Origin: Pseudoxanthomonas mexicana
Lineage (GTDB): Bacteria; Pseudomonadota; Gammaproteobacteria; Xanthomonadales; Xanthomonadaceae
Assembly: GCF_010093385.1 (NCBI RefSeq)
Contig: NZ_PDWV01000006.1
Span: forward strand, 1-64,000
DNA: 64,000 nt
Reading direction: 5' to 3'
In this document: positions 39,541 through 62,992 of the stretch, in pieces
How the letters are laid out: each line of letters begins with the position of its first letter
Position numbering within the stretch: the stretch's first letter is position 1
Translations under genes and position numbers: made by a program
The notes under the pieces: generated by a model
What the model saw: the letters and a program-made list of their open reading frames with translations, nothing else
Databases searched by the model: none
What the model was told of the DNA's origin: nothing

Positions 39541-40569
39541 ATGCCCGTGCGTCGCAACGTCCCCGTCGTCGATCTCTCCGCCGAACCCCTGAGCCGCCTG
39601 CCGGGCGTCGGTCCGCGCGTGGCGGAGAAACTGGCGGCGCGCGGCCTGGTGACGTTGCAGGACCTGTGGTTGCACCTGCCGCTGCGGTACGAGGATCGCA
39701 CGACGCTCACGCCGATCCGGCTGCTGCAGCCGGGCGTGCCCGCGCAGGTGGAAGGCCGGGTGGAAGCCGTCGAGCGCGGCTTCCGCTATCGCCCCGTGCT
39801 TCGGGTGGCGATAGGCGACGAAGGGCATGGCACGCTGGTGCTGCGGTTCTTCCATTTCCGCGCGGCGAAGGTGGCGCAGTTCGCGGTGGGCACCCGCCTC
39901 CGCTGCTACGGCACGCCCAAGCCCGGCCAGCATGGGCTGGAGATCATCCACCCCAGCTACCGGGTGCTGGGCGAAGCGGACGACGTCGCGCTGCGCGATG
40001 CGCTGGACCCGATCTACCCGGCCGTCGAAGGGCTGGGCCCGGCGACGCTGCGCAAACTGATCGGTCAGGCACTCGAGCGCCTGCCGGAAGCGGGCGCGCT
40101 GGAGCTGCTGCCCTCGCCGTTGCTCGAAGGCCTCGGATTGCCGTCGCTGCGCGACGCGCTGCTGACCATGCATCGTCCGCCACGCGATGCGGACGTGGCC
40201 GCGCTGGCGCTGGGGACGCACCCGGCGCAGCGCCGGCTGGCGATCGAAGAGCTGCTCGCGCACCACCTGAGCCTGCGGCGCCAGCGGCTGGCCCTGCAGC
40301 AACACCGGGCGCCTGCGCTGAAGGGGCGGGGCACGCTGGTGAAAGCGCTGGTCAAGGCCTTGCCGTTCGCGCTGACCGGTGCGCAGACGCGCGTCTTCGA
40401 ACAGATCCGCGAGGACATCGCGCGCCCGTCGCCGATGCTGCGCCTGGTGCAGGGCGATGTGGGCACCGGAATGTTAGCATCGATGGGCGTACACAGAAGA
40501 CCTTTTCGATGCAGAAGAGCTCCAATAGGCTACCAAAGCCTGAAGGAAAGAGGGCGGGGCTTACCTTAA
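39541..40569 (+). pseudogene. recG: recG 5' part, interrupted inside Walker A
   Basis: Residues 1-310 are the RecG wedge and linker: LSRLPGVGPRVAEKLAARGL, LWLHLPLRYEDRT, then LTGAQTRVFEQIREDI and the start of the helicase domain LRLVQGDVGTG. The Walker A should continue as GKT, but after the codons GAT GTG GGC ACC GG (to about 40469) foreign sequence begins and the frame ends at 40569 after about 32 unrelated residues. All helicase motifs are lost, so the product should be inactive. No 3' half exists within this window. RecG normally reverses stalled forks. Confidence 0.93.
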
Positions 40570-43070
40570 GCGCTCAGAGTAAGCGGGGTGCCCTTCGATG
40601 GCATGTCAAGTTGTTCCTGGCGTACTTACTAGATGCCATCCAGGAGTCCTGGCGGGAAGGCGCTCGGGCGCGCCGTCCAAAAGACATCAAGGCAACGGTG
40701 GCTGTCCACACCAAATGTGGCGCGATCCAAATCCCCTTGCTTCGGCCAGCAGGTGGATGGACTGAAAAGCTTCTGGAGCGCATTCAATCCACATTGAAAG
40801 AGCAGGCTGATCTCGTGTGGGTCGGAGCTACACAGTGTTTGGAAAGCGAAGCGTTTCCCCGCTCTTCACTGAAAGCCCTGGTGACGCGTCTAGTGGGGCG
40901 GGTTTATCCGCCCTCTAGAATGGAAGCGGTGATTAAGAAGATGGAAGCATTCCTCGCAGACTATGCAATCTGCGAGAAGCGTAACGAAGCGAAAGTCTGC
41001 CATGCCAGCGCAATCATCGAACAAGCCGAAGCCCGCGGCTTCTCTAGCAGCGCGATAAGCGTAACGCCAAAGGGGCCACGAGCGCGCCTGGTTGTCATCT
41101 TCTCGCAGCTACGGCTGCGACTTCCCGGCGGCCCTGGAACCGGGGAGTGGGCGGCACTTCAAGAGAGAATGAACGCGGCCGCCGTCAAATTCAAAGCGTG
41201 CCAAGGCAACTTAGTCTTCCTCCCGACAGAGAACAACCCCCACGGACGTAGGACATACCCAGGGTACGTTGTGGACTTCGAACAACTGGGAGTTCGGCAG
41301 GGCGGCCTCTTGACGGAAGTGTTGGATGCGATGCCAACTCCCGTAAGTCATCAGTACTTCCAAAGGCTGATGCGTCACGTTGAATGGATCTGCGCGACGT
41401 CGTGCATTTCGCAAGCTAGGGTTCGTGCAATCCTAAGCTCACGATCTGACATTCTTCAGGAAGATGATCTCCAAGTTCTCACCAATGCACTGATCTCATG
41501 TTGTGATGCCCGCCCTCTAGAGCCGCGGTCAAGAAGCGGCTACCTGAGCGCGTTCCAAGAGGCCTTTCATGGCGCATTTCAATCGCTAGGAACTCGTGCG
41601 AGCAAGGTTCAACTGGATAGCACGAAGCACTGGGCGAGAAGAAGTCGCGGACTCATCAGTGAGGTTGCCGATCCTGGAGCGATATCGCCGGAGAACCGCC
41701 CTCCAATCATTCACGTCGTAGGAGGTGATGGCGCACTGAGTAGAGAGCGTGCTGCGGAACACTTGGAAGATAGGCTGAAGCGTATCGAGAATGCGTGTGA
41801 CCATGCATTAGCAGAGTTCATCAACTGGCGGAAATTCATGCTTCGCGCCGGTGAGATGGGCGTTGATGACTCTTTCCGGTCCTACGTGGATCAAATGAAG
41901 GGGCTTGGTGACGGGCGAGAGGATTTCCGGCAATGGCTGAGAGGTGCTGCCACTGAGGACATTGCAAGAGTCACCTTCTTTGCCGCTCAGAAGCACGAGC
42001 TTTATCGAGAGGCTCGCGATAGGGAGCTTCGTTCGAATGTCCACCAAGGTCGCTTCAACCGCGCATTCGGACGGATCAGCGAAGAGTACCCAGAACTGGT
42101 GAACTGGTGCGGAGGTCGTTCATCACCATTCTACTCTTTTGCCATTCAAATGATCTGGTGGGTGCCACGCTGGGTTCAGTTGGCAATTGAAATGAAGATA
42201 CAGATAGTCACTTCATGGAATCGCGACACGGTGAAGCATCTGGAGGCTAATGGGGTTCGTCGCGAGGGGGCGCGATTGGAGTTCCAGTCATTGAAGGGAA
42301 AAAATGGAGAGATGGAAAACGCCAGTGTGGAGCCGGTCGATAAGCTCCTTCAGGCTGGCATCGATCTTATGATTGAGCACAACGCCAACGTCGATCGCTA
42401 CTGGTCTCGCGAATCGCCAGGCTTGTTTGTTACCTTCATCGAGAAAGGGGTGGGCCGTCGAGTCTTTGGGCGAGGTACAGACCATAAAATTCTGTCGAGA
42501 TTCATTGCCTACTACGAGCTTCCGCACTTTACACGGGAGCAGCTTCGAAATCAGAGCGCGGGTGCTGACTATCTTAGCCATGACGATCCACATGCGACAC
42601 AAGGACGCCTGGGGCACACAAGCATCAGGACAACTGCGGGCTATCTTGACGGCACCGTATTTCGGGTATTGAACTCAGCCAACATTGCGAAGTTCCAGAA
42701 GGTGCTAAGCGCCTCGATTGTGTGGGCCGCTGGTGGCGAGGATGCGGTGACAAAGAGCGGGATGCCTCTTTCGTACGTGGACAAGAGGCTGCTATTTCCC
42801 GTGAGTGACAGTGCGGTGACGGATCGTCTGATGCCGCCGGAGTGTGACGTCTGGATGGTTGACCCAGAGCAGCCTTTGGTACTGGACAAGATCAGGGTCA
42901 TGCATCTCATTCGACAGAGGGCCTACTACGCACAGAACTGGCAAAGATTACGCGCTGAATCATCGGAGAGATTCTCCAAGGTCCATCTTCCACGGATCGA
43001 GTTTACAGCCGCACTCTGGGCACTCATCTCGGACTCCGAGTATGCGTGTTTGCTGGAGCAGAGGGTATGA
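40509..43070 (+). CDS. Large tyrosine recombinase (first of three)
   Basis: 853 residues. The catalytic domain lies at about 500-720: HFTREQL supplies HxxR (around residue 672) and GRLGHTSIRTTAGYL gives the second His and the tyrosine nucleophile (around 711). The long N-terminal region is not recognisable. The ATG at 40509 is only 40 bases inside the island and overlaps the dead recG frame, so its promoter is probably recG read-through or very close to the end. Corresponds in position to ginA. Base composition is lower in G+C than the chromosome. Its stop overlaps the next start. Confidence 0.88.
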   Translation: MQKSSNRLPKPEGKRAGLTLSAQSKRGALRWHVKLFLAYLLDAIQESWREGARARRPKDIKATVAVHTKCGAIQIPLLRPAGGWTEKLLERIQSTLKEQADLVWVGATQCLESEAFPRSSLKALVTRLVGRVYPPSRMEAVIKKMEAFLADYAICEKRNEAKVCHASAIIEQAEARGFSSSAISVTPKGPRARLVVIFSQLRLRLPGGPGTGEWAALQERMNAAAVKFKACQGNLVFLPTENNPHGRRTYPGYVVDFEQLGVRQGGLLTEVLDAMPTPVSHQYFQRLMRHVEWICATSCISQARVRAILSSRSDILQEDDLQVLTNALISCCDARPLEPRSRSGYLSAFQEAFHGAFQSLGTRASKVQLDSTKHWARRSRGLISEVADPGAISPENRPPIIHVVGGDGALSRERAAEHLEDRLKRIENACDHALAEFINWRKFMLRAGEMGVDDSFRSYVDQMKGLGDGREDFRQWLRGAATEDIARVTFFAAQKHELYREARDRELRSNVHQGRFNRAFGRISEEYPELVNWCGGRSSPFYSFAIQMIWWVPRWVQLAIEMKIQIVTSWNRDTVKHLEANGVRREGARLEFQSLKGKNGEMENASVEPVDKLLQAGIDLMIEHNANVDRYWSRESPGLFVTFIEKGVGRRVFGRGTDHKILSRFIAYYELPHFTREQLRNQSAGADYLSHDDPHATQGRLGHTSIRTTAGYLDGTVFRVLNSANIAKFQKVLSASIVWAAGGEDAVTKSGMPLSYVDKRLLFPVSDSAVTDRLMPPECDVWMVDPEQPLVLDKIRVMHLIRQRAYYAQNWQRLRAESSERFSKVHLPRIEFTAALWALISDSEYACLLEQRV

Positions 43071-45346
43071 AAAAAGGCGTGAAAGTTGACGCTGGTTTGA
43101 TTGCGCCATCGCCAAACCGAGATTCAGATGAGGGCGCTTGGCCCACGGGAGTTGCACGAGATAGAAGGATTCTAAGCGATTGGAATGACCCGGTTCTACG
43201 GGTGGCCAACGGTGACAAGATTAGGCTCATCGACCTCTCCCGAATTCCGCTGCCAGCCAATGGTCCTGACGGACCCTTCTCGGAAAGCTTCACTCTTGGG
43301 AAATTTCCGCACTGGGTAGATGTTGCGCGCGCGCAATTTTGCAACGTTCTGTCAGCCGGGACCGGGCATGACGCTCTAGGTAAAGCGGTCAACTCGCTCA
43401 ATCATACGTCCAGGTTTTTCGCATGGTGCGTGAAGAATCGGATCTACAAGTTGGCCGATGTGACCTTGGACGATATGAGGAGGCTGGCGCTCGAGTTGCA
43501 ACCCAAGGGGTGGTTCAGCGCCCTAAACACGGAGGCCGAGCTGAGGGAGCTAGTCAGGCGCTGCGAAGACGATAAAGCCCTACTTCTGCAGGTTGCTTCA
43601 TCTCATGATGGGGCGACTTGCAGCATCTCTTCGGAGCGACTCTCCTCTTACCTTGGATACGTAGTCACATCGCGGGAGTATCCGATGTTCCTCCGTAAGG
43701 AAATAGCTGGTCTGATGCAGAAGGTGACAGTCGGGGCGGAACGGAGAAGCGACGATATGCAGCCCTGGTCCGAGGCGTCGTTCAAGAACTGCTTCGGTGC
43801 ACTGAATGGACTTTGCATTCTTCCCGCGACGCTTGACAGGCTGAGCTTTGAACCCTTCGCTAACGCCCGGCTTCATGCGCGCCTTGCCAACGGGATTCCG
43901 GATGGGCGGACCGCCAACTTGACGGTGGAGGATGCTGCTAAGTTGCTAGCGGAGTCGCTTGAGTGGCTTTACAACAAGGCTGATGCAGTTATCGAGCTCG
44001 TGGCGTTCTGGCGAGAGACGCTTGTTGGGACAGCATCTGAGTACAAAGGCGAGGCGAACGTCAGCACGCGCGTGAATGCAGCGATACGTGAACGATACGC
44101 AGAGCTAAAGTCGCGTGTGGACTTTCCCTATGAAGTGGCCTCGTTCACCACTGCAACCGGTGAGAGCATCTCCCTGCTGGTGAAGAATCTCTTGACGGCG
44201 GCTTTCGTCCTGATTGCCATTACGCAAGCAAGAAGAAAGAATGAGGTAGTCGGAGAGGGGAGTCGGCCATGGGGCATCTACGCGGCGTGCCTTGAGAAGA
44301 TTGATCCCGATATCGATGCATATGCCCTGGACATCTACATCGAGAAGACCTGGAATGCCTGGATGAAGATGCCGGCATCAGCGCTGACGGTGCATGCAGT
44401 GGACGTGCTGACAAGATTGAGGGCCGCCGCTCTTCCCGGCGAGGAGGTCGGAACCTCGGATCAGGATAGGCGTGCCCAGAAGCTGTTCTCCTTCCCCGGC
44501 AGCGCGGCGCTTCTCGGGGATGCGAGCGCCATGTTTGGTTTTTCCTTTGACGAACACAGCGGGGAACTGTATTCGCTGGCGGGAGTTGCTGATTCTGAAC
44601 GCAAGACTCACATGTTCCGACGTTTCTTTGCGCTGGTGTACTTCTATCGATGGGAACACCCCAAGTTGCAGGCCTTGTCGGAGTTCCTTGCACACTTTGA
44701 TCTCGAAACGACCAGGGTCTACATCACCGACCCAGCCATGCGAGACAAGGCAGATCGAATTGAGGCACTACATCGGCACAGAGCGGATTGTTTCCCAGAG
44801 CAAGAGATGTCAGAAGCCCAGCGCCACTACGCGGATGCGCAGTTGGATGCGATGCTAACTTCCGACGGTGCCGGGGGGCCAATGACGAGGCGTGTACATC
44901 GTTGGATTCAGCGCATCTGGCGGCACGTCGAGTTTCCTGATCGCGACCCAGCGACCCTGAAAAGCGAAATCCGAAAGCAGTTTAAGAGCAGGGGGTACGC
45001 GCCAACCCCGATGTCTCATGGGGTCTGTTGGGCGGAAGAATCTGGCGCGCGGGTCGGCTTGAGAGGGCGTTGTAGCAAGGAGGGGACAATTCGTAGGGAG
45101 CTGGCAGGAGTGGATATCTGCGGCGCCTGTGTATTTCACAGTACATCGAGCTCCTTTTTGCTGAACGTGGAGCAGGATGCCAAGCGCCTGGATGAGCAGG
45201 CAGCTCTGGCAACCGACCCGCGAGAAGCGCAAGTTCTTCGCGCCACCGCCTCGTGCTCTCGAGAGCTTGTAGAGTTGGAACTGTCGCTTATCCAACGTCA
45301 GCGATGCCCACTGACCAAGCCACCAGGAAAGAAGGTGCCGGAATGA
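43067..45346 (+). CDS. Tyrosine recombinase (second of three)
   Basis: 759 residues starting at ATG 43067, overlapping the preceding stop (ATGA). Catalytic residues: Arg I in ARRKNEV (around 388), a beta-strand lysine region YIEKTW, HMFRRF (HxxR, around 514), and LAHFDLETTRVYI with His and nucleophile Tyr (around 551). After the catalytic domain the last 110 residues hold several Cys/His (GVCW, GRCSKEG, CGACVFH), which look like a zinc-binding module. Its stop overlaps the next start by ATGA. Probably acts with the other two recombinases in insertion and excision. Confidence 0.88.
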   Translation: MKKGVKVDAGLIAPSPNRDSDEGAWPTGVARDRRILSDWNDPVLRVANGDKIRLIDLSRIPLPANGPDGPFSESFTLGKFPHWVDVARAQFCNVLSAGTGHDALGKAVNSLNHTSRFFAWCVKNRIYKLADVTLDDMRRLALELQPKGWFSALNTEAELRELVRRCEDDKALLLQVASSHDGATCSISSERLSSYLGYVVTSREYPMFLRKEIAGLMQKVTVGAERRSDDMQPWSEASFKNCFGALNGLCILPATLDRLSFEPFANARLHARLANGIPDGRTANLTVEDAAKLLAESLEWLYNKADAVIELVAFWRETLVGTASEYKGEANVSTRVNAAIRERYAELKSRVDFPYEVASFTTATGESISLLVKNLLTAAFVLIAITQARRKNEVVGEGSRPWGIYAACLEKIDPDIDAYALDIYIEKTWNAWMKMPASALTVHAVDVLTRLRAAALPGEEVGTSDQDRRAQKLFSFPGSAALLGDASAMFGFSFDEHSGELYSLAGVADSERKTHMFRRFFALVYFYRWEHPKLQALSEFLAHFDLETTRVYITDPAMRDKADRIEALHRHRADCFPEQEMSEAQRHYADAQLDAMLTSDGAGGPMTRRVHRWIQRIWRHVEFPDRDPATLKSEIRKQFKSRGYAPTPMSHGVCWAEESGARVGLRGRCSKEGTIRRELAGVDICGACVFHSTSSSFLLNVEQDAKRLDEQAALATDPREAQVLRATASCSRELVELELSLIQRQRCPLTKPPGKKVPE

Positions 45347-45939
45347 GTGTCTCTGATCAGCATGTTTCACGTCGCTTGCGTGCTCAGGCAGATCTTGCCA
45401 TGAGTGCAAAGAAGGATCTCATGACGCGCTGGGCGCGTGATGGAGTTCCCGTGTGCGTCGGCTCGGAGCATCCAAAACAGCTTGAGTGGTATCCGACCAG
45501 TCTTCGGAGCTTCAGTGCCTGGGATGGTAGTCAGAACTCTGCGGCGGTCCGTGAGTCCGAACCGCTTCTTCGCAAGACGGCGTTCCAAACGCTCAAATCT
45601 AATGCCTCGCTGCATCTGGCTATCAACCAGTTGCTTCGCCAGTTGGAGGTCACAGCCGAAGCTTGTCGGAGAGCCTTGAATCCTGAGCTTGCTGTGGAAG
45701 ATGCAAAGGAGAAGGCGGAGGTCGAGCGCGCTAAGCGCGCCGGAGCACTACTGGGGTATCGTCAGGCAAGAGCCGAAGTCCGCACGGCCCGGAGAGATCT
45801 CGGTGCCGAGAAGAGGGCGCACCAGGGAACCTTGGGGCTGCTAAGGGAGAAAGAGCGCGAACTGGCTCAGGCACATGAGCAAATCGCAGCGCTAACTAAG
45901 ACCTTGCGTAAGACGACGAGCCTCAAGTCGGTTCGATAG
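45343..45939 (+). CDS. Coiled-coil accessory protein of the recombinase operon
   Basis: 198 residues. The C-terminal half is a long heptad coiled coil (EKAEVERAKRAGALLGYRQ ... ALLREKERELAQAHEQI-like). No enzyme motif. The ATG overlaps the preceding stop and the stop abuts the next start at 45940. Size and place suit the fourth GInt component (ginD, a small putative helix-loop-helix protein) or Tn554 TnpC. Homology itself cannot be shown here. Likely helps the recombinases bind or synapse. Confidence 0.7.
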   Translation: MSVSDQHVSRRLRAQADLAMSAKKDLMTRWARDGVPVCVGSEHPKQLEWYPTSLRSFSAWDGSQNSAAVRESEPLLRKTAFQTLKSNASLHLAINQLLRQLEVTAEACRRALNPELAVEDAKEKAEVERAKRAGALLGYRQARAEVRTARRDLGAEKRAHQGTLGLLREKERELAQAHEQIAALTKTLRKTTSLKSVR

Positions 45940-47976
45940 ATGATGCCGCCAGAACAGAGACAGCAAATCACCGCCATGTATCACCATCATGACCTCGCTC
46001 CTGGCCTGGCACTTGCTGTGGCTCTGGGTGCGGGTATAGAGCCCGCGAAGGGCTTTAAAAAGCTCCAGTCCACGGGCCTGGTGGAGCGGTGGCAGGTACC
46101 GCTCTACCTTCCGTCGCGCTATCTAGATGCGCGAGTACCCATTGAGCGCTTCTTTGGCCTTACCGGCCAGGGACAGGAAGTTGTAGTTGTGGGACGTTAC
46201 GCAGGCAACATGCGTACGAAGTGGGGTGCAGGGCGCTGGGGAGGCAAGCGCAGCCCGCAAGCGCAAGGGGCACTCCTTGATGAGGAGGGGATGCAGCTAC
46301 GTTTCTCGGTCTTCGGCGATGCGCGAACGCTGCAGAAGACACTCGAAGAGTCCGAGGGGCCGATCGCACTCGCGGGTACGCTTACCCAGGTGGGCGCGCA
46401 TGTCTATTTGAACAATCCGACATTGCTGGATCAGAGTCTGATTGGTGCGGTAGTGCCCCACTACCCAGGCAAGGCGCGGGTGCTGTCCCTGGCCATGGCC
46501 CGTCGAGTCATGGCAGCTCTACTGCCGTCTACCATCCCCCTGTGTGCTGCAGAACTCCGAGCAAGGGCACGAGCCTTTGTGAGCGACGGGCAACTGAGAA
46601 GACTGCTGGGAAGGCCCGAAGGAACCCTAGAGGACTTGCTGGTTAGAGCCCACTTCCCTTCGTCGCCGGACGTGGGAGAGCGCGCGCAATGGCACCTTGA
46701 GCGTTTGTCAGCGCTCATCACGGTGGGGGATCTTAGGGCAGCCAAGCAGTGTCCAGTCGCGGTGAGAAAGCCGCTGGCCCTCTCGCCTTGGCAGGATCTC
46801 GCATCGCGTGCGCCTTTTGTCCTCACGCACGAGCAGGCTAGGGCGGTCGATCGCCTGACAGAGCGCTTTGGTGGGACAGAGGCGTCCTCTACCTTAATCA
46901 ATGCCGATGTCGGCATGGGGAAGTCGATCGTCTACCAAATGGCGGTTGCCTCCGCTGTCCGTTCGGCTGCACGCGCGGCCGTTCTCCTGCCCAACGAACG
47001 ACTGGCTGTGCAGGCTCATCAGGAGATCTGTCGTCTATTTCCTGAGTTCGATGCCGCCCTGGTTACCGGGAAGACGAATGATCGAGCGATGACGAACGCG
47101 CGTTGGCTCGTCGGAACAACGGCCCTACTGTTTCGTGACATTGGCCACTTGGATGTGTGCGTCATCGATGAGCAGCATCGCTTCTCGGTGGAGCAGCGAC
47201 GTGCCTTGGTAAAGGATGGAACGCATGTTGTCGAGATCAGCGCCACTCCTATTCCTCGCACACAGGCCATGCTGCTGTACGGGAAGTTGGATGTGCTGCG
47301 ATTGACGGAACGCCACAGTCCGCAAGACATCCGTACCCAGATTGTGCATCGAAACGGCACATCGGACATGGTTGAGCATCTCAGGAGCCTGCTGAATGCA
47401 GGCGCTCGAGTTCTGATCGTGTGTCCTCGGAGGGAGGAGGGGGAGGACGATGAAGGGCCTGACCTTCCATCGGTGGCGCGCGTGGCACATAAGTGGAGCA
47501 CCATGTTCCCTGGATTAGTGCGCGCCCTGCATGGGGCCTCGGGTGAGGCGGATGTACACCAGGCTTTCGAAGACATGGCAACGGGCGCTGCCCGCATCTT
47601 AGTCGCCACAACCGTGGTTGAGGTGGGCTTGAACATTGCCAATCTGCGAGGCGTCGTTATCGTCCATGCAGAACGCTTTGGTCTGTCGCAGCTACACCAG
47701 TTGCGTGGGCGCTTGGCACGGGAGGGGGGAGAGGGTCACTGCTACTTGTACCTGCCCCGCGCGGTGGGTTTAGATGCAGATGTAAGGCTACAGGCGCTGG
47801 TTGATACCAACGATGGATTCGTTCTTGCCGAACACGACATGAGAATACGCGGCATTGGGGATGTCTCAGACGCCGGTGCTCGCCAGCATGGCAGCGCCGG
47901 TAGCCTTCTGATGAATCGCCAAGTAGGTATGTCCACTGTCATGGAGATCATGGAGATGCTCGGTGACGAGGACTGA
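45940..47976 (+). CDS. RecG-like DNA helicase carried by the island
   Basis: 678 residues, full RecG length. An N-terminal wedge-like OB region (GFKKLQSTGLVERWQVPLYLPSRYLDA, split here for length) precedes helicase motifs: LTHEQARAVDRL (Q motif), Walker A NADVGMGKS (around 321-329), DEQHRF (around 410), SATPIPRTQAMLLYG, TTVVEVGLNIANLRGVVIVHAERFGL and QLHQLRGRLAR (motif VI). Walker A is intact (GKS). It differs strongly from the host recG fragment. It sits between the coiled-coil and third recombinase genes, directly abutting and overlapping both. It may replace lost RecG activity or serve in recombination; neither is proven. Confidence 0.9.
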   Translation: MMPPEQRQQITAMYHHHDLAPGLALAVALGAGIEPAKGFKKLQSTGLVERWQVPLYLPSRYLDARVPIERFFGLTGQGQEVVVVGRYAGNMRTKWGAGRWGGKRSPQAQGALLDEEGMQLRFSVFGDARTLQKTLEESEGPIALAGTLTQVGAHVYLNNPTLLDQSLIGAVVPHYPGKARVLSLAMARRVMAALLPSTIPLCAAELRARARAFVSDGQLRRLLGRPEGTLEDLLVRAHFPSSPDVGERAQWHLERLSALITVGDLRAAKQCPVAVRKPLALSPWQDLASRAPFVLTHEQARAVDRLTERFGGTEASSTLINADVGMGKSIVYQMAVASAVRSAARAAVLLPNERLAVQAHQEICRLFPEFDAALVTGKTNDRAMTNARWLVGTTALLFRDIGHLDVCVIDEQHRFSVEQRRALVKDGTHVVEISATPIPRTQAMLLYGKLDVLRLTERHSPQDIRTQIVHRNGTSDMVEHLRSLLNAGARVLIVCPRREEGEDDEGPDLPSVARVAHKWSTMFPGLVRALHGASGEADVHQAFEDMATGAARILVATTVVEVGLNIANLRGVVIVHAERFGLSQLHQLRGRLAREGGEGHCYLYLPRAVGLDADVRLQALVDTNDGFVLAEHDMRIRGIGDVSDAGARQHGSAGSLLMNRQVGMSTVMEIMEMLGDED

Positions 47977-49285
47977 AGCTTTGGTGGAGTGGGTAGGAGT
48001 CGGCACTGAGCGTTTGCCAGTCTTCTACAACGCGAAGCTACGTCTCATGGACGAGTTTCATGACTACGTGTGCTATGTCGCCGAGACCGAGGCCAAGAGT
48101 GGATCGAGCCAAGCGTACACATCCAAGGTGCAAGCAGTGTCATACGCGTTGCTGGCGTGGCTGCGATTTCTGGACGGCACAAGCGCCAGTTGGAAGGATG
48201 CCGACAATGCCAAGCTACGGGGATTCAAAGATCTTGCGCTTAAGCGGGTGAAAGCATCGGTGCGTGGCAAGGGGAATGAGAACGCAGCAAAGCGAACGGT
48301 CAATATCCAGCTCAAGTGGATCTACCGCTACTACGCTTGGGCAGAGCGGACGGAGCGATGCGGAACGATTCTTGGGCCCGGCGAAGACGCGCCGATCAAA
48401 TCGACACTCAACATGCCCTCGGCTAACAGTAAACGGAAAAGTGGTCTGGACAAGAATGCCTATCCGCTGCTGTTCGGGAGATTGGGGAATCGATCGGGTG
48501 CTCAGTACTTTGCGAGCGGCCAAGACAAAAGGAAGGTCGCGGAAGTCCTGTCCGAGGCAAACGACCCTTTCATCGCTGAGCGAAACCTCATCATTCTTGA
48601 GCTCGCATCACGTGTAGGTTGGCGTGCCGGCACAATGACGTTTCTGGAGAGCGGTGACTTTCCAACGCATCCGAATGAGAAAATGCCTGGCGATGGCGTT
48701 CCGATCCGACCCGCGATTCAGAAAGGCGGACACTCTGACTCATTTGGCGTTCCTCTAACGCTTGCTCTACGCATCTCACGATTCATTCAATGGCGAGAGC
48801 GCTGGCTGATTCAGGGGGGATGGAGTGAGAAAGAAGCGAAGGGTCGACTCTTCGTGAGTGGGAAAACCGGCACGCCCCTGGGCAACAAGACGATAACGCA
48901 GATGATTGGCTCTGCTTTCAGGAAAATTGGGGTTGAGGCCGGTCGCGGCGCGGGCGTTCACTCGTTTCGTCGCAAGTATGCAGAGGATTCCACGCGCGAC
49001 GATCTTTCCTCGCGGCGCGCGGGCGGCTACTCGACCGCGATGGAGGATGTCATGCACGGCACCGCTCATAGGCTGGGGCACAGGAGCTTGTCCTCTCAAG
49101 TGGCCTATCAGCGAGCAGTCCATGCCAGTACGCATAAAGACCACACACATGAGCTGCGAACGAGCTTGGAAGAAGCCGAATCAGAGCTCGCAGTAGCCAA
49201 GGCGGAGAACGCTGCGCTGCGGGCGGAGCTATCTCGACGAGGCGCTCCTGCTAACCCGAAAGGCGGAAAGAAGAAGTTGCGATAG
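47963..49285 (+). CDS. Tyrosine recombinase (third of three)
   Basis: 440 residues. Catalytic residues: Arg I in GWRAGTM (around 218), HSFRRKYAED (HxxR, around 333), and HRLGHRSLSSQVAYQRA, with the His and probable nucleophile Tyr (around 382). A C-terminal coiled coil and basic tail follow (EEAESELAVAKAENAALRAEL, KGGKKKLR). The start is GTG at 47963, overlapping the RecG-like gene by 14 bases. It is the last gene of the operon. Size resembles Tn554 TnpA. The C-terminal coil may interact with the coiled-coil partner. Confidence 0.9.
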   Translation: MTRTEALVEWVGVGTERLPVFYNAKLRLMDEFHDYVCYVAETEAKSGSSQAYTSKVQAVSYALLAWLRFLDGTSASWKDADNAKLRGFKDLALKRVKASVRGKGNENAAKRTVNIQLKWIYRYYAWAERTERCGTILGPGEDAPIKSTLNMPSANSKRKSGLDKNAYPLLFGRLGNRSGAQYFASGQDKRKVAEVLSEANDPFIAERNLIILELASRVGWRAGTMTFLESGDFPTHPNEKMPGDGVPIRPAIQKGGHSDSFGVPLTLALRISRFIQWRERWLIQGGWSEKEAKGRLFVSGKTGTPLGNKTITQMIGSAFRKIGVEAGRGAGVHSFRRKYAEDSTRDDLSSRRAGGYSTAMEDVMHGTAHRLGHRSLSSQVAYQRAVHASTHKDHTHELRTSLEEAESELAVAKAENAALRAELSRRGAPANPKGGKKKLR

Positions 49286-49314: not shown

Positions 49315-49962
49315 TCATGGGCCGCAGCACTTCTTCCACTTTCGTCCGCTACCGCATGGGCAAGGATCATTTCGACCGATTTTTTGGTTGCCTTCTCCGC
49401 CTCGAAGCACTTGCCTCATGGCGGCATTCCGTGACACTGGCGGGACCTGTTCCTCTCGGGCCACAGCGGCATCGAGTTGATCATCCTGATGCCAAGGTTC
49501 TGCCAGTCGCATGCCGAATCTTAGCCGGGCCTGGTCTGGGGCCAGGCACAGGCCGAACCATAGGTCGGCCTTCTGCAGGTATTTTCGGCGCGTCGTCAGC
49601 ACGGCCAGCCTCTGAGACGCCTCTAGGTCATTTTCCGCACTGATCAGCACCGTGAGTCCACTCTTATCCGCGAACATGAGCGCGAGGCTGTGCGGCTTGC
49701 CATCACGGGCGGCCTGCTGCGCCTGCCCGTCAATCAGCCGGTTGAGATCGTCCCGCGTTGGGCCATCTAACTCCAACAGTTGGAATCCCTGATCAAGAAC
49801 CGCAGGCTCAGGTCTGACTTGAATCTCTTGCAAGATGCGGCTTAGCGTCGTTCCTTCATGGTGGGTCAGTAGCCCTGGTGGCGTCGCGGCGCCAGGTAGT
49901 GCGCGTCGTCGCGCGGCCATAGCGATGTCAATGCCGAGCGAGAACCCCTCATCCATGTGCAC
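49315..49962 (-). CDS. SEC-C-motif protein, N terminus possibly truncated
   Basis: 215 residues from GTG 49962, or 213 from ATG 49956. The C terminus is a SEC-C zinc motif ([16 protein letters not shown]). The rest is not recognised; the middle reads [20 protein letters not shown]. The open frame continues upstream of both starts with plausible coding sequence to about 49,990-50,000, where the sequence turns into a yqaA fragment. No ribosome site precedes either start, so the true N terminus was probably removed. Converges on the third recombinase gene. Confidence 0.6.
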
Positions 49963-49994
49963 CAGTTTCTGCTCGTCATCAAACCAGAGGTTGT

Positions 49995-50171
49995 GCCGAG
50001 CGCTATGGCAGTTGGTCGTTGCTGCTGAGCTGGGTGCCGATCATTGGTGATCCGCTGACCTTGGCCGCCGGGGTCATGAAAGAGCCGCTCTGGCGCTTCC
50101 TGCTGCTGGTGACGCTGGCCAAGGTGGGCCGTTACCTCGTGCTGACGCTGATTACCCTGCAGGTGCTGTAG
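49995..50171 (+). pseudogene. yqaA 3' fragment (YqaA/DedA-like membrane protein)
   Basis: Translating from about 49995 gives a C-terminal piece [24 protein letters not shown] followed by VMKEPLWRFLLLVTLAKVGRYLVL and the stop at 50171. RYGxWxLLLSW(L/V)PIxGDPLT is the signature of YqaA proteins. Only about 57 residues survive; the 5' part is gone at the junction near 50,000. Probably part of the original metal-resistance segment. Confidence 0.75.
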
Positions 50172-50195
50172 CCGTCGCTGCGCTCGTGCGCAAAG

Positions 50196-50387
50196 CTATG
50201 ACGGCTGGCCGCGACGTGCCTGGATCTTGGCCCGCCGCCGCGGCACGTGCGACAGAATGCTGCGTCGCTTGTGCTCGGTGTACTTGCGCCAACTGCGGAT
50301 CTCCTCGGTGGTGCGAAAGCAGCCCACGCATACGTCGGTCTTCCGATCGAACTGGCAGATGTCCGTGCAAGGGGAGGGGCGGCTCAT
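50196..50387 (-). CDS. DUF1289 small cysteine protein
   Basis: 63 residues, SPCTDICQFDRKTDVCVGCFRTTEEI, a DUF1289 (Fe-S/zinc-like) motif with four Cys, followed by a basic tail. Function unknown. The ATG overlaps the stop of dmeF (ATGA), so it is in the dmeF operon. Confidence 0.85.
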   Translation of the reverse strand: MSRPSPCTDICQFDRKTDVCVGCFRTTEEIRSWRKYTEHKRRSILSHVPRRRAKIQARRGQPS

Positions 50388-51364
50388 CGCGGCGTTTCAC
50401 TGAGCGCGGTCCGCGCCTCGATGGTCACGTGCACGATCTCCTCGTGAATGGCCAAGGCATGCTTGAAATGATCCGGATGCACGGGATCTTCGGTCACGAC
50501 CTCGGCCACACAGGCGAACTTGCCACGGCCTACCTGCCAGACGTGCAGATCGCTGATACGCGCCGGCACCGAGCCTTGCTCGATGGCTTCGCGGATTTCT
50601 TCCACTACGGGAGCATCCATCTGCGCATCGAGCAAGACCTTGCTGGTCTGGCGAATCAGGCCCCAGGCCCACACCGAGACCAGGGCCGCGCCCACTAGCC
50701 CCATCACCGGGTCCAGCCAGGCCGCACCGAAGTACATGCCACCCAGCAGCGCGATGATCGCCAACACGGAGGTCGCCGCATCGGCGATGACATGCAGGTA
50801 AGCCGAGCGCTGGTTCAGATCGTGATGGGCGCTGTGTCCGTGATCGCCATGATGCTCATGGTGATGGTGATGGTGATGGTGATCGTCGTGCCCGTGCCCG
50901 TGATCATGGTGATCCCGCAGCCACCAGGCGCACAGCAGGTTGACCGCCAGGCCCACGATGGCAATGGCAATGGCCTGCTCGTAGTGGATGGTGCTGGGGC
51001 GGAACAGGCGCTCGATGGACTGGAAGGCCATCAGGCCTGCCACACCCAGCAGCAGGATTGCGCTGGTGTAACCGCCCAGGATTTCGATCTTCCACGTGCC
51101 GAAGGCAAAGCGACGGTCCTGCGCGAAGCGGCGCGCACAGGCGTAGGCGAAGACCGACAGGCCCAGTGCCAACGCGTGGGAGCTCATGTGCCATCCATCG
51201 GCCAACACGGCCATCGAGTTGTACCACCAGCCTCCGGTGATCTCCACGACCATCATGATCAGGGTCAGGATCATGGCCCGACGCGTGTTGCGCTCGGCGA
51301 GCGGGTTGCCTTGGTCGAAGGCGTGGGAATGGCGCCGCGTAGCGGCCAGGGCATCGAGGTTCAT
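50384..51364 (-). CDS. dmeF: CDF-family Co/Ni efflux transporter DmeF
   Basis: 326 residues. It opens with HSHAFDQGNPLAERNTRRAM, typical of DmeF-type cation diffusion facilitators. Six transmembrane helices carry the DGWHMSSHALALGLSVFAY (HxxxD-type) site and HVIADAATSVLAI (HxxxD). A very His/Asp-rich cytosolic loop lies between helices 4 and 5 (residues about 151-182). Exports Co2+, Ni2+ or Zn2+ across the inner membrane. It diverges from dmeR across a palindromic operator. Confidence 0.94.
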   Translation of the reverse strand: MNLDALAATRRHSHAFDQGNPLAERNTRRAMILTLIMMVVEITGGWWYNSMAVLADGWHMSSHALALGLSVFAYACARRFAQDRRFAFGTWKIEILGGYTSAILLLGVAGLMAFQSIERLFRPSTIHYEQAIAIAIVGLAVNLLCAWWLRDHHDHGHGHDDHHHHHHHHEHHGDHGHSAHHDLNQRSAYLHVIADAATSVLAIIALLGGMYFGAAWLDPVMGLVGAALVSVWAWGLIRQTSKVLLDAQMDAPVVEEIREAIEQGSVPARISDLHVWQVGRGKFACVAEVVTEDPVHPDHFKHALAIHEEIVHVTIEARTALSETPR

Positions 51365-51388
51365 GACGGGGCAGGGATGGGTTGCTGG

Positions 51389-51405
51389 ATACCCCCATAG
51401 GGTAT
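51389..51405. promoter_or_regulatory. DmeR/RcnR-type operator
   Basis: ATACCC-CCATA-GGGTAT is a 6-base inverted repeat with a C/G-rich centre, as known for CsoR/RcnR-family operators. It lies in the 53-base gap between dmeF and dmeR, so one site could control both. Confidence 0.75.
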
Positions 51406-51417
51406 ATGATCGCTTCC

Positions 51418-51690
51418 ATGGCGCATACCCACCGCGACAAAAAGAAGCTGCTCACCCGCGTTCGCCGCATCGGCGGTCAGGTCGCGGCATTGGAGCGCGC
51501 ACTGGAAGCCGAAGGCGACTGCGGTGATCTGCTGATCCAGATTGCCGCGGCTAAGGGCGCCATGCATGCGCTGATGATGGAAGTGCTCGCCGGTCATCTG
51601 AGCGAGCATGTGGTGACCGCCGAAACCGAGGCCGAGCGGGCCAAGGAAGCCGGCGCCATCATGGACTTGCTGACCCGTTATGCCCGTTGA
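51418..51690 (+). CDS. dmeR: Metal-sensing repressor, RcnR/FrmR (CsoR) family
   Basis: 90 residues. The Ni/Co ligand fingerprint of RcnR is complete: His3, Cys35, His60, His64. Helices RRIGGQVAALERALEAEGDC and AKGAMHALMMEVLAGHLSEHV are typical. A four-helix-bundle repressor that releases DNA on metal binding. The ATG at 51418 is chosen because His3 then fits. Regulates dmeF and itself via the palindrome at 51389-51405; may also affect the czc genes. Confidence 0.9.
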   Translation: MAHTHRDKKKLLTRVRRIGGQVAALERALEAEGDCGDLLIQIAAAKGAMHALMMEVLAGHLSEHVVTAETEAERAKEAGAIMDLLTRYAR

Positions 51691-51768
51691 TCGCAGACCG
51701 TTGGTGGGTGCTGCTTTCCCGAACGTCTGTGCTGGACAGGCCCGTCCTTAACCCCGTAGGCTAATGCA

Positions 51769-52140
51769 GTGATCCGGTTTTCCGCCCGCGCCAAGAGTGT
51801 CTTGCACGTCAGCATGCTGTTGCTGCTGGTGCTGGGCGTTCTCGTGCGGCCGGCACTGAATTTCGTGGGTGAAATCCACGGGGCCGCGCATGCGGCCGAA
51901 GTCGCGAGCGAGCACGGCCACGGCCATCCTGGCGATGCCCTCGATGCCGATCACGACCAAGACCACGCCTCGGGCACGCACCTGCTGATGCACCAGGCCG
52001 ATTCGGGTTCTTCCTCCGGCCTGCTCACCAGTTTCCGCCTGCCGCCCGTCGAAGTGGCTGCCTCTCAGCGTCTGCAGTGGACGCCGGCTTCTTCGCTTCC
52101 CCAGCGACTCTCTTCGCCGTTTAGACCTCCGATTGCCTGA
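51769..52140 (+). CDS. His-rich CzcI-like periplasmic protein
   Basis: 123 residues from GTG 51769. An N-terminal hydrophobic signal (VSMLLLLVLGVLV) leads to a His/Asp/Glu-rich segment (HGHGHPGDALDADHDQDHASGTHLL). Small proteins like this precede czcC in Cupriavidus and related czc clusters (czcI). Probably binds metal in the periplasm or modulates expression of czc. The start codon is uncertain; the reading frame is clear. Confidence 0.7.
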   Translation: MIRFSARAKSVLHVSMLLLLVLGVLVRPALNFVGEIHGAAHAAEVASEHGHGHPGDALDADHDQDHASGTHLLMHQADSGSSSGLLTSFRLPPVEVAASQRLQWTPASSLPQRLSSPFRPPIA

Positions 52141-52206
52141 TGACAGGGCCGGCCGCCGTTAGCGCGGCCTGAGTACGTCTGTCCATCAACCAATCGGAGA
52201 TGTTCC

Positions 52207-53453
52207 GTGAACTTGTGTTATGCATGGGTTCTGGCCTTGGCCGGAGCCTGTGGTGTTGTGCCATGGGCACACGCCACTGAACCTCTGCGCCTGCAGGAGG
52301 CGGTTTCCCGCGCCTTAGGTGCAAATCCGGCCCTAGCGGCCGAAGCAGCTCAACTCGATGCCGTCCGTGCCCGCGCCGAGCGCGAGGGCTTGGCCCCGCA
52401 GTACTTCGTCACCGGCGAACTGGAGAACGTGGGCGGTACCGGTTCACTCAGCGGAGTGAATTCGGCCGAAAGCACCTTGCGGATCGGCCGTCTGATCGAG
52501 TTGGGCGGCAAGCGCGCCGCTCGCCAGGCCTTGGGCGCTGCCGAGATCGATCAGCAGCAAACCGCTGCCGACGCCACGCGTATCGAACTGACCAGTCGCA
52601 CGGCGGCCCGCTTCATCGAAGTCGCAGTGGATCAGCAGCGCCTGGACTTTGCCAACGAACGCGTTCGCCAAGCCGAGCGTACGCGCCGCGAGGTAGCAGG
52701 CTGGGTCTGGGCCGCACGCAACCCCGAGTCGGATCTGCGTGCGGCTGAAATCGTCGTGGCCAACGCAGAGCTGGATCGTGAGCATGCCGAGCACGAGCTC
52801 AGCAGCGCCCGCACCACCTTGGCCGCGACCTGGGGCGACACGATCCCGGACTTCGACACGGTGGCTGCTGATCTGACCGATCTGCCCGAGGTCGAACCGC
52901 TGGACACGCTGCTGGCGCGCTTGCCGAACACGATCGATCAGCAAGCCTTCTCGCGTGAGGCTCGCCTGGCCGAAGCCCGTCGTCGTATCGCTGAGGCGGC
53001 TCGCAAACCCGATCTGAACTTCAACGTCGGCGTGCGTCGTCTGGAAGGGCCCAGTGATCAAGGTCTGGTGATGTCGGTGTCCGTACCGTTGGGCAGCCGC
53101 ACGCGGGCGGGGTACTCCATCGCCGAAGCCGACGCGCAACTGGCGGCCATCGAAGCGCGCCGAAAAGCCGAGCAGTTCGAGCGCCATCAACTGGTCTTTG
53201 AGAAGTACCAGGAACTGGGCCATGCACGCACCGAGGTGGAGTCGTTGCGCGGACGTGTGGTGCCCAAAGCCGAGCAAGCCCTGGCCTTTACCCGGCGCGG
53301 CTTCGAAGCAGGGCGGTTCTCATTTCTCTCGCTCTCCCAGGCGCAGACCACGCTCTTTGAACTGCGCGAGCGCCTCGTCGAGGCCTATGCGCGCTATCAC
53401 ACCTTGCTGGTGGAGCTCGATCGGCTCACCGCAACCACCCAGGACACCTTTCC

Positions 53454-53457
<4 letters not shown>
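52207..53457 (+). CDS. czcC: CzcC-type outer-membrane factor
   Basis: 416 residues with signal peptide (to about WAHA). TolC-family outer-membrane channel of an HME-RND pump: SRALGANPALAAEAAQLDAVRARA, then IGRLIELGGKRAARQALG, and SVPLGSRTRAGYSIAEADAQL in the second repeat. It overlaps czcB by 4 bases (ATGA). Carries metal ions out from the periplasm/inner-membrane pump. Confidence 0.9.
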
Positions 53458-57888
<4,431 letters not shown>

Positions 57889-57949
57889 TCCAGTGGGGTG
57901 GGGCGCGCGTGCGCTCCACCCCCTCCTGATCCCTTCCACATACCTATAG

Positions 57950-58696
57950 ATGCGAATGAACTCACTTCTCTACAAACCCTCCGGATGGGGCGGCATGATC
58001 TCCGCCTCCACCACGCGCACGCTGGTTCTGTTGGCGGGCCTGCTGCTGTTGTTGTTCACCGCCAACGGCGCGCTGGCCCATGCCGTAGCCGAAGGTGATA
58101 AGGGCTACATCCAGGAAATCAGCGGGGTGCACCTGCTGTCGTTTGCCTACCTGGGCGCCAAGCACATGGCCACCGGGTACGACCACATCCTGTTCCTGCT
58201 GGGCGTGATCTTCTTCCTGTACCGCATGAAGCAGATCGCCTTGTACGTCACGCTGTTCGCGGTGGGTCACTCCACCACGATGCTGTTGGGCGTGTACTTC
58301 AACGTGGGCATCAACAGCTTCCTGATCGACGCGATCATCGGCCTGTCGGTGGTCTACAAGGCGCTGGACAACATGGGCGCCTACCAACGCTGGCTGGGTT
58401 TTCAACCCAACACCAAGGCGGCCACGTTGATCTTCGGTCTGTTCCACGGCTTTGGCCTGTCGACCAAGATCATCGAGTACGACATCTCTCCCGATGGTCT
58501 GGTGCCCAACCTGTTGGCCTTCAACGTCGGCGTGGAAATCGGCCAGCTGCTGGCCTTGGGCGCAATCCTGATTGTGATGGGCTACTGGCGCCGCTCGCGC
58601 GGCTTCTGGAAGCACGCCTATACCGCCAACGTCGCGATGATGTGCGCCGGTTTCATCCTGATCGGCATGCAGCTCACTGGCTACTTCGTTTCCTAA
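57950..58696 (+). CDS. HupE/UreJ-like membrane protein
   Basis: 248 residues. After a signal-like helix (TLVLLAGLLLLLFTANGALAH), about six transmembrane helices hold HLLSFAYLGAKHMATGYDHILFLLGV, GHSTTMLL, and LFHGFGLS, the HupE/UreJ_2 signature with conserved His and Asp. Such proteins facilitate Ni/Co movement and are common in czc clusters. Part of the probable operon after czcA. Start could also be 57956. Confidence 0.88.
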   Translation: MRMNSLLYKPSGWGGMISASTTRTLVLLAGLLLLLFTANGALAHAVAEGDKGYIQEISGVHLLSFAYLGAKHMATGYDHILFLLGVIFFLYRMKQIALYVTLFAVGHSTTMLLGVYFNVGINSFLIDAIIGLSVVYKALDNMGAYQRWLGFQPNTKAATLIFGLFHGFGLSTKIIEYDISPDGLVPNLLAFNVGVEIGQLLALGAILIVMGYWRRSRGFWKHAYTANVAMMCAGFILIGMQLTGYFVS

Positions 58697-58720
58697 TTCA
58701 AGACATTGCGAGAACACACC

Positions 58721-59365
58721 ATGTACAACAGCAAGCCTCTCAACACCGATCTGCCGTCCTCGCGCCAGTTGCTGCGCTCGACCATCATCGCCTTCATCGT
58801 GGCCGTCGTCCTGTTGGTCACCGTCGTGCTGCCGTCCGAGTACGCCATCGACCCCACCGGTGTCGGCCGCATGCTCGGGCTAACCGAGATGGGTGAGATC
58901 AAGGGTCAGTTGGCTGAAGAAGCCGCCGCCGATGCCGCACGTGATGCGGCCGCGGCCGCGGCAGGCGCGCCGATCTCATCGGCCGCCTCATCCGCCAGCC
59001 CCGCAGCACCGGCAGCGGCGGCAGCACCGGCCGTGGACACCACGCAATGGCGCGATCAGATGCAGGTCGTTCTGGCGCCAGGAGAAGGCGCGGAGGTCAA
59101 GTTGGCGATGACAGCCGGTCAAAAGGCGAACTTCACCTGGACCGCGCAGGGCGGTGTCGTGAACTTCGACACCCATGGCGATGGCGGTACCGGCGGCGAA
59201 TCCACCAGCTACGAAAAAGGACGCGGCGTGGCCGCCGACGAAGGCGTGCTGGAAGCGGCCTTCAACGGCAGCCACGGCTGGTTCTGGCGTAACCGCAGCG
59301 AGGCCACGGTGACGATCACCCTGCGTACGGCCGGCGACTACGCCCAGATCAAGCGCGTGATGTAA
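58721..59365 (+). CDS. Single-helix membrane-anchored periplasmic protein
   Basis: 214 residues: one transmembrane helix near the N terminus (IIAFIVAVVLLVTVVL), an Ala/Pro-rich linker (about 75-105), then a beta-rich domain with QMQVVLAPGEGAEVKLAM, FTWTAQGGVVNFDTHGD, and HGWFWRNRSEATVTITL. It corresponds to the 'transmembrane anchor protein' that often follows the HupE-like gene in metal clusters. Role unknown; a scaffold or sensor for the pump is possible. Confidence 0.75.
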   Translation: MYNSKPLNTDLPSSRQLLRSTIIAFIVAVVLLVTVVLPSEYAIDPTGVGRMLGLTEMGEIKGQLAEEAAADAARDAAAAAAGAPISSAASSASPAAPAAAAAPAVDTTQWRDQMQVVLAPGEGAEVKLAMTAGQKANFTWTAQGGVVNFDTHGDGGTGGESTSYEKGRGVAADEGVLEAAFNGSHGWFWRNRSEATVTITLRTAGDYAQIKRVM

Positions 59366-59485
59366 CCCCGTGGCGGCCAGGCGCCTTAAGCGGGTCGTGG
59401 CATCGCCTCGACCCACCGTCGCGAGCCTGGGTCCTCGCGACACCTACCCATCCTCGGCCACGCGCCGATCACGAAGGAACTGAAG

Positions 59486-59746
59486 ATGAAAGCTCGTTCA
59501 CTGTCCATTGCCGGCCTGGTTGCGCTGTCGCTGGTCTCGCTGTCGGCCCTGGCCCATCCGGGCGCGCACGACGAAGAGAAGGAAATCCCCAAGACCTGTG
59601 AGGATCTGAAGGACACCAAGCGTTTCACCGACGACTCCGCCTTCCCTGAAGTCAAGGCGCTCAAGCAGAAGTGCGGCGTGCCGGAAAAGCCGGCCAAGGC
59701 CGACGGCGCCAAGAAGCCGGCCCCGGAAGCCAAGAAGACCAACTGA
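59486..59746 (+). CDS. Small secreted protein of the metal cluster
   Basis: 86 residues. A signal peptide (SIAGLVALSLVSLSALAH) releases a mature protein of about 60 residues with two Cys (KTCEDLKDTKRF, LKQKCGV) that could form a disulphide, and a Lys/Pro/Ala-rich tail. ATG at 59486 has AGGAA 8 bases upstream. Seen in similar positions in metal islands; function unknown. Confidence 0.7.
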   Translation: MKARSLSIAGLVALSLVSLSALAHPGAHDEEKEIPKTCEDLKDTKRFTDDSAFPEVKALKQKCGVPEKPAKADGAKKPAPEAKKTN

Positions 59747-59812
59747 TCGTTCGCCGTCCCAGGCGGTCGGCTTCCCGATCGCCTTGGGACACCTTCTCTG
59801 TCGAGGTGAGGT

Positions 59813-60676: not shown

Positions 60677-60715
60677 CGATACCCGTACTGCCGCCACCAC
60701 TGCTGAGGTCTTCCC

Positions 60716-62989: not shown

Positions 62990-62992
62990 GAA

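What the first reader, a model, noticed from the sequence alone, without database searches (positions are those of the whole stretch)
45940..47976. Mobile element that destroys recG carries its own full-length RecG-like helicase
The island encodes a 678-residue RecG-like protein with wedge region and all helicase motifs, while the host recG is truncated before any. A substitute for the target gene would lower the cost of insertion. Because it is divergent and embedded in the recombinase operon, it may also act in integration or excision (branch migration of Holliday junctions made by tyrosine recombinases is what RecG does). I know of no described element with this design.
Basis: partly seen in the sequence, partly recalled or inferred. 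Interest (0 to 1): 0.92.

Follow-up and report, generated by a model that had tools for sequence, protein, structure and literature searches.

The report
Island breaks recG, carries RecG stand-in
A mobile DNA element that inserts into and destroys a bacterium's recG repair gene carries a RecG-type helicase of another, plasmid-related lineage; a second element with a different recombinase set, breaking recG at another spot, carries the same kind of helicase, which suggests that it stands in for the gene destroyed.

Summary
Window 45940-47976 encodes a full-length 678-aa helicase of RecG architecture inside a recombinase operon. The element (window 40470 to contig 93377, 52.9 kb) splits host recG in the motif I (Walker A) codons; recG's 3' half survives at its far end. 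The genome shows no other full-length RecG.
The helicase does not derive from host recG: it nests in a clade of plasmid-type helicases (100/99 support).
All 7 loci found of its own sub-clade lie in elements that break recG. Most telling is genome G054: another recombinase set, inserted at motif V, with the helicase outside the recombinase operon and its start codon overlapping the stop of broken recG (the two contigs there are assumed to join). Relatives of that element in rtcB and in a gene I read as ykgJ-like lack it.
Against: relatives of the window's element carry a RecD2-like helicase in the same operon slot, one of them inserted in a tRNA-Leu gene, so a recombination role remains possible.
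Best reading: a GInt/SE/Tn554-like element that compensates for its damage. No function has been shown.

The parts
39541..40468 (+). host recG 5' fragment (wedge and start of motif I); its 3' half lies beyond contig G000:C82 93377, outside the window
40456..40479 (+). attL: recG GATGTGG - spacer GCACCG - element end GAATGTTAGCA; attR at contig 93365-93391 reads CTTGCTAACATAA - GCAGCG - GCAAGACC
40509..43070 (+). R1: large tyrosine-recombinase-like protein (853 aa); first catalytic Arg and box-II His not conserved, Arg680, His703 (Trp in L033) and Tyr712 kept; resembles Tfp/GinC by description only
   Evidence: no Pfam match
43046..45346 (+). R2: large tyrosine recombinase (766 aa) with R397, H522 (Arg in L021), R525, H550, Y559 and a C-terminal Cys/His motif
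   Evidence: no Pfam match
45343..45939 (+). R3: small protein (198 aa), TnpC/Srap/GinD-like by position and size; ATGA overlap with R2
45940..47976 (+). RecGi: 678-aa RecG-architecture helicase of the plasmid-type lineage, starts right after R3
47963..49285 (+). R4: ordinary-size tyrosine recombinase (440 aa) with R221, K254, H333, R336, Y382; overlaps RecGi
49315..64000 (.). start of variable cargo (SEC-C protein, cation efflux, metal-sensitive repressor, OEP/HlyD/RND efflux, HupE/UreJ, MFS); cargo runs to contig 93377

Best explanation
The window holds the left part of a site-specific integrative element of the broad GInt/SE/Tn554 kind (two complete tyrosine recombinases, one incomplete one and a small partner protein) that inserts at one spot in recG, in the codons of the Walker A motif. 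Shown: the insertion splits recG; the element ends are inverted repeats around what looks like a 6-bp spacer; the operon points the way recG does and, in the window, starts within the tail of the broken recG frame. Shown: the operon carries a helicase of full RecG architecture (wedge homology plus all helicase motifs) of a separate, plasmid-related lineage, the only full-length RecG-type helicase found in this genome. Inferred: it is expressed from recG's own transcription unit and takes over RecG's work (fork regression, Holliday-junction branch migration), so that insertion costs the host little. Inferred: it may also help process the element's own recombination junctions.
For: (1) All 7 loci found of the RecGi sub-clade are in recG-breaking elements: window, L005, L006, L007, L008, G1616, G054; L008 and G1616 have identical R1-R4 proteins and the same left spacer, so they may be one insertion. 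(2) Two separate systems: family A (R1-R4, Walker A site, helicase inside the operon) and G054's family B (recombinases related to L023/L036; motif V site; recombinase operon at the opposite end, pointing inward; helicase next to the promoter-proximal recG half, its ATG overlapping the stop of broken recG as ATGCTGA). (3) Family-B relatives inserted in rtcB (L036; Pfam RtcB in both halves) and in a gene I read as ykgJ-like (L023) show no such helicase in the stretches searched, which reach the far half of each target. (4) The helicases of A and B form one clade, 100/100 support, inside the plasmid-type lineage. (5) In the genus, 2 of 38 genomes have split recG and exactly those 2 carry RecGi; 34 have a RecG over the cut-off and no RecGi match; 2 have no RecG found. 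(6) RecGi is the most conserved of the four proteins compared: 62-69% identity against 36-49% for R1, R2 and R4, dN 0.26-0.34 against 0.50-0.74, synonymous sites saturated. (7) Full RecG domain order.
Against: The same operon slot holds a RecD2-like helicase in L021 and L033, and L033 sits in a tRNA-Leu gene, so a helicase can be there for another reason. RecGi is far from chromosomal RecG in sequence and might not do its work (277.7 bits for TIGR00643; ordinary RecGs score 592-833, though only 7 of 31 genomes there pass the strict cut-off of 659.4). RecGi in families A and B shares one ancestor, so there are two associations with recG but one origin of the gene. The elements in rtcB and the ykgJ-like gene carry no second copy of those genes by the motifs I scanned, so compensation is not a general rule. 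Two genomes of the genus show no RecG at all (G1383, reported 99% complete, and G1384, 89%), so recG loss may be bearable. The MAG holding L006 has two more RecG genes, 57-59% identical to the broken one's 3' half, probably foreign to the bin. In G054 the two recG halves are on different contigs, so the single insertion there is inferred; the same holds for L005, L007 and L008 (only the window, L006 and G1616 have both halves on one contig).
Confidence: 0.62

Rival explanations
1. RecGi is a working part of the recombination machinery: it branch-migrates or unwinds the Holliday junction or fork left after the first strand exchange; its presence at recG is incidental.
For: It lies between R3 and R4 in the operon; sister operons carry a RecD2-like helicase in that slot, one inserted in tRNA-Leu. 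For SEs, studied relatives, a model with exchange of one strand and a junction resolved by replication is given (PMC10214605, passages seen).
Against: Related operons exist without a helicase gene in them (L020, L023, L035, L036). In G054 the helicase is outside the recombinase operon, next to broken recG, and the two family-B elements in other genes lack it. It would not explain why all 7 loci found are at recG.
Confidence: 0.25
2. Chance association: the RecG-like helicase is ordinary plasmid-derived cargo picked up once by elements that happen to use recG, then passed to another element in the same site.
For: Plasmid-borne RecG-like helicases are common (251 plasmid records matched, 56 of them over at least 80% of the query); the sub-clade is monophyletic; the hosts whose kinship is told are of one family or its order.
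Against: Open frame intact in 7 of 7 loci, constrained more than the recombinases, in two different gene positions; the cargo after the operon differs between the near-identical elements of the window, L005 and L006.
Confidence: 0.1
3. RecGi is a degenerate remnant or duplicate of host recG.
For: Same domain order as RecG.
Against: The tree puts it with plasmid helicases, outside the 18 ordinary chromosomal RecGs in it; all motifs intact; no frame damage in 7 of 7 loci.
Confidence: 0.02

Closest known systems
GInt islands (ginABCD; PMC5385486, parts 1 and 2 of 6 of the text read, plus a word search)
   Same: Three tyrosine-recombinase-type genes plus one small gene, all at one end, long variable cargo, site-specific insertion, imperfect flanking repeats with 6-nt staggered cuts proposed; transcription from outside into the operon reported there
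   Different: Here the ordinary-size recombinase comes last and a helicase is inserted before it. The words recG and helicase do not occur in that paper's main text; its authors expect that insertion probably does not fully inactivate target genes, whereas here recG is cut through its core.
[quoted passage not shown] PMC10214605, passages read)
   Same: Two complete and one incomplete recombinase plus a small protein; 6-bp spacer/footprint
   Different: Gene order permuted; helicase present; the words helicase and recG do not occur in that paper's main text
Tn554 (tnpABC, radC target; recalled, and table in PMC10214605)
   Same: Large plus ordinary recombinase and TnpC; inserts in a DNA-repair-annotated gene (recalled)
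   Different: No third recombinase gene and no helicase (as recalled)
RecG-like helicases of large plasmids (annotated 'helicase-related protein' or 'DEAD/DEAH box helicase')
   Same: Closest relatives of RecGi in sequence and tree outside its sub-clade
   Different: 29-37% identity in the rows listed; several near mobH, tra, ssb or PRTRC genes; no annotated recombinase in the 11 regions inspected (4 with 10 kb, 7 with 3 kb on each side; plasmid gene tables are incomplete). Of the 11 plasmids PLSDB types 1 as conjugative, 3 as mobilizable, 7 as non-mobilizable.
Chromosomal RecG
   Same: Wedge, helicase domains, motifs
   Different: Deep split in the trees; 277.7 bits for TIGR00643 against 592-833 for ordinary RecGs

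Membership tests
RecG (TIGR00643 equivalog) | Score over the curated cut-off of 659.4 bits | tested here: not met
   277.7 bits; the cut-off is strict, passed in 7 of 31 genomes and 34 of 38
RecG (TIGR00643 equivalog) | Wedge/OB domain plus SF2 helicase motifs in RecG order | tested here: met
   the Pfam wedge model itself did not fire
RecG (TIGR00643 equivalog) | Groups with chromosomal RecG in a tree | tested here: not met
   Groups with plasmid helicases
RecG (TIGR00643 equivalog) | Fork or Holliday-junction remodelling activity | not testable with these tools
   Needs biochemistry or complementation
GInt | Three recombinase-type genes plus one small protein at one end of an island | tested here: met
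GInt | Gene order with the small gene last (ginABCD) | tested here: not met
   Order is large-large-small-helicase-ordinary
GInt | Direct sequence membership of GinC and GinD clusters | not tested
   Gin sequences were not fetched; only weak matches of R2 to operons that I take to be GInt/SE-like (L022, L034, L025)
SE | Order intA-tfp-intB-srap | tested here: not met
   Permuted, with a helicase inserted
SE | 6-bp footprint between inverted element ends | tested here: inconclusive
   Both ends seen in 6 of 6 family-A loci and consistent with a 6-bp spacer; left and right spacers identical only in L005; which end carries the imported copy is not known
SE | Strand-biased circularization | not testable with these tools
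   Needs DNA from cells
Tn554 | Two recombinases plus TnpC, radC target | tested here: not met
   Three recombinase-type genes, recG target

The most novel reading that the evidence does not exclude
A class of mobile elements that pay for the damage they do: elements with two different recombinase sets, using different sites in the same important gene, carry a dedicated lineage of non-orthologous stand-in for exactly that gene, placed so that the broken gene's own transcription and translation drive it.
Probability: 0.5. Interest if true: 0.87.

Novelty: new variant of a known kind. Interest (0 to 1): 0.8.

Why it matters
If true, an integrative element can use a conserved catalytic motif of an important repair gene as its home because it brings its own replacement. 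That gives a testable example of selection on target damage, a natural non-orthologous replacement of RecG that could show which RecG activities a cell needs, and a marker helicase for finding recG-breaking islands. It also adds helicase-bearing branches (RecG-like and RecD2-like) to the little-studied GInt/SE/Tn554 kind.

Tried and rejected
Rejected: recG duplicate (trees); 'recG merely truncated' (3' half found). Structure models of RecGi and R2 were of low confidence (mean pLDDT 48.5 and 45.5) and were not used or searched. Viral contigs gave no relatives of RecGi or R2. Phage records: 54 matched, none over 80% of the query. The operon has no near match on plasmids. A solved-structure search with R4 found nothing. 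Surveys with R2 profiles: 397 order genomes, 369 class (42), 398 phylum (43), 20 (81), 250 (82) and 147 (85), partly overlapping; apart from the window's genome only G702 and G1136 (the L007 genome) gave long matches, all others were short and weak. Whether the rtcB or ykgJ-like elements carry their own substitutes was checked by motif scan: none seen; a substitute without these motifs would be missed. Pfam names both rtcB halves but matches neither short ykgJ-like piece, so that name is my reading. The tRNA-Leu remnant at L033 is found neither by ARAGORN nor by an Rfam scan of that stretch, but it matches annotated tRNA-Leu genes at 74-79%; no replacement tRNA was seen on the stretches held, and the element may run off the contig. 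Paper searches on recG, on such islands and on RecG-like helicases showed no such report in the listings (I read listings, not the papers, except the two named); most subscription papers are not in that library. Rows dropped: in the trees, 5 of 24 fetched chromosomal loci (L075, L076, L078, L081, L082) fell to my motif filter, and one search leaves out 6 more chromosomal rows to save time.

Full report
WHAT IS THERE. Window 45940-47976 is an intact 678-aa ORF with full-length, colinear but sub-cut-off matches to RecG models and all helicase motifs. It is the fourth of five genes in one direction, R1 40509-43070, R2 43046-45346, R3 45343-45939, RecGi 45940-47976, R4 47963-49285, with overlaps or no gaps. 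R2 and R4 keep the tyrosine-recombinase catalytic residues; R1 lacks the first Arg and the box-II His but keeps Arg680, His703 and Tyr712 (residue roles recalled). Pfam sees none of the three; L021's R1 and R4 and L020's R4 do match Phage_integrase (E 3.5e-7, 6.4e-5, 0.0016), which links the set to tyrosine recombinases.

THE INSERTION. Host recG runs from 39541 to the Walker A codons (GATGTGG-GCACCG, to 40468) and then meets the element end GAATGTTAGCA. At contig 93365 the mirror end CTTGCTAACATAA is followed by GCAGCG-GCAAGACC and the rest of recG. The element is 52,908 bp. No other full-length RecG was found in the genome. In 12 intact recG genes of the genus looked at, of 34 over the cut-off, 10 have the spacer GCAGCG, so the left spacer of the window may be imported, as in the 6-bp footprint reported for SEs (PMC10214605, passages); which end is imported is my inference.

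RELATIVES WITH THE SAME HELICASE. One scan of 84,980 species genomes, by short exact peptide patterns and so blind to distant relatives, gave 4 loci: L005 (Pseudoxanthomonas sp. Root630, RecGi 100%), L006 (MAG, 99.9%), L007 (Rhodanobacter MAG, 69%), L008 (MAG, 62%). In 4 of 4 the element sits at the same recG codons, the helicase lies between R3 and R4, and the 3' half of recG was found behind the same right end, on the same contig in L006 and on another contig in the other three. The near-identical elements in the window, L005 and L006 have different spacers and different host recG flanks (92% and 84% protein identity to the window's fragment), which indicates separate insertions of one moving element. 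A profile search of 198 family genomes (E up to 1e-75) gave 4: the window's genome, G1616 (element proteins R1-R4 identical to L008's, same left spacer, one-contig genome, element 34,852 bp in recG), G054, and G1573, which is of the plasmid type. L008 and G1616 may be one inherited insertion.

G054. Here recG is broken at motif V (ACCACCGTGATC|). The helicase (48% identical to RecGi) follows at once: its ATG at 16976 of the reversed stretch overlaps the stop TGA at 16980 of the broken recG frame. The rest of recG lies on another contig behind the inverted end TTTCTAGGGAAA (left end TTTCCCTAGAAA), next to a four-gene operon of 677, 770, 210 and 474 aa pointing inward. These recombinases match L023 and L036 (R4 32-33%, R2 27-31% over about 400 aa) and only weakly the window's R2 (41 aa, E 2e-4). 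So the recombinase set, the recG site and the position of the helicase gene all differ, while the helicase is of the same sub-clade. No intact RecG was found in G054 or G1616; the long frames of 1180 and 1182 aa I take for Mfd. That the two G054 contigs join is inferred.

CONTROLS ON THE ASSOCIATION. L036 sits in rtcB (both halves match Pfam RtcB) and L023 in a gene I read as ykgJ-like; the two halves of each target lie about 28 and 48 kb apart, one copy only of the scanned target motifs was seen, and tblastn with RecGi, G054's helicase and the RecD2-like protein found nothing in these stretches. L033 sits in a tRNA-Leu gene cut near the anticodon (annotated tRNA-Leu matches) and L021 lies on an Alteromonas plasmid, target not resolved; both have R1-R2-R3-small-RecD2-like-R4. 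L020 (Methylibium plasmid) and L035 have operons without a helicase gene in them. In the genus, 2 of 38 genomes have split recG and RecGi, 34 have RecG over the cut-off and no RecGi match, 2 have no RecG found.

RARITY. R2 profile surveys of 397, 369, 398, 20, 250 and 147 genomes (partly overlapping sets) gave long matches only in the window's genome, G702 (the L033 genome) and G1136 (the L007 genome). The number of independent element lineages behind my argument is therefore small.

WHERE THE HELICASE COMES FROM. In trees of 37 and 33 rows RecGi (with G054's helicase, 100/100) lies inside a clade with 11 and 12 helicases of the plasmid type (100/99; its place among them has 90/91 and 97/95), away from ordinary chromosomal RecG (18 and 12 rows) and Mfd (4); one chromosomal row (L084) is a long branch of unsure place. 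Five fetched chromosomal loci fell to my motif filter and 6 rows were left out for speed. The plasmid relatives come from a search matching 251 records, 56 over at least 80% of the query; I inspected 11 regions: several lie by mobH, tra, ssb or PRTRC genes, none by an annotated recombinase.

MECHANISM. Shown by sequence: split recG, intact helicase with wedge homology, operon in the direction of recG, starting inside the tail of the broken frame in the window and L008 and 27 bp after it in L007, and in G054 an overlapping start. Inferred: expression with recG and replacement of RecG. The rival, a helper for junctions made by the recombinases, is supported by the RecD2-like protein in the same slot. 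The two are not exclusive: a slot that once held a recombination helicase could have taken a RecG-type one when the element moved to recG. G054 tips the balance, since there the gene is tied to recG and not to the recombinase operon.

SELECTION. Between the window, L007 and L008, RecGi has 62-69% identity and dN 0.26-0.34, the recombinases 36-49% and 0.50-0.74, with synonymous change saturated. Helicases may simply evolve more slowly, so this only shows constraint.

LITERATURE. GInts (PMC5385486, parts 1-2 of 6 read and a word search) and SEs (PMC10214605, passages read) are the closest described elements; neither main text contains 'recG' or 'helicase'. Searches for recG-targeting elements or such helicases showed no such report in their listings.

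Noticed in passing
RecGi Walker A codons, window 46900-46927: RecGi's own motif I DNA (GATGTCGGCATGGGGAAGTC) resembles the element's recG target, with changes in the spacer and right arm; it could be partly recoded for self-immunity or still be a weak target.
   Followed up: partly
plasmid records: A family of RecG-architecture helicases on many large plasmids, several near mobH/tra, ssb or PRTRC genes; I know of no description of it.
   Followed up: partly
L033 (G702:C32) and L021 (Alteromonas plasmid): Sister recombinase operons with a RecD2-like helicase and an extra small gene between R3 and R4; one is inserted in tRNA-Leu near the anticodon.
   Followed up: partly
L036 (G1033) and L023 (G115): Relatives without helicase inserted inside rtcB and inside a gene read as ykgJ-like, both targets cut in two.
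   Followed up: yes
L025 (G046) and L034 (G1017): Four-gene recombinase operons (ordinary-large-large-small) directly before an ssb-like gene, the site described for several GInts.
   Followed up: no
G1383 and G1384: Two genomes of the genus with no RecG match beyond Mfd, one reported 99% complete: recG lost or in an assembly gap.
   Followed up: no
G1397:C21:31237-33474: recG open frame of 821 aa with about 95 extra residues in frame between profile positions 384 and 385.
   Followed up: no
window 50384-62041: Cargo rich in metal/cation efflux genes (Cation_efflux, metal-sensitive repressor, OEP-HlyD-RND, HupE/UreJ).
   Followed up: partly
G1135 (L060, L061): The MAG with L006 holds two further RecG genes, 57-59% identical to the broken one's 3' half, probably from other organisms in the bin.
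   Followed up: yes
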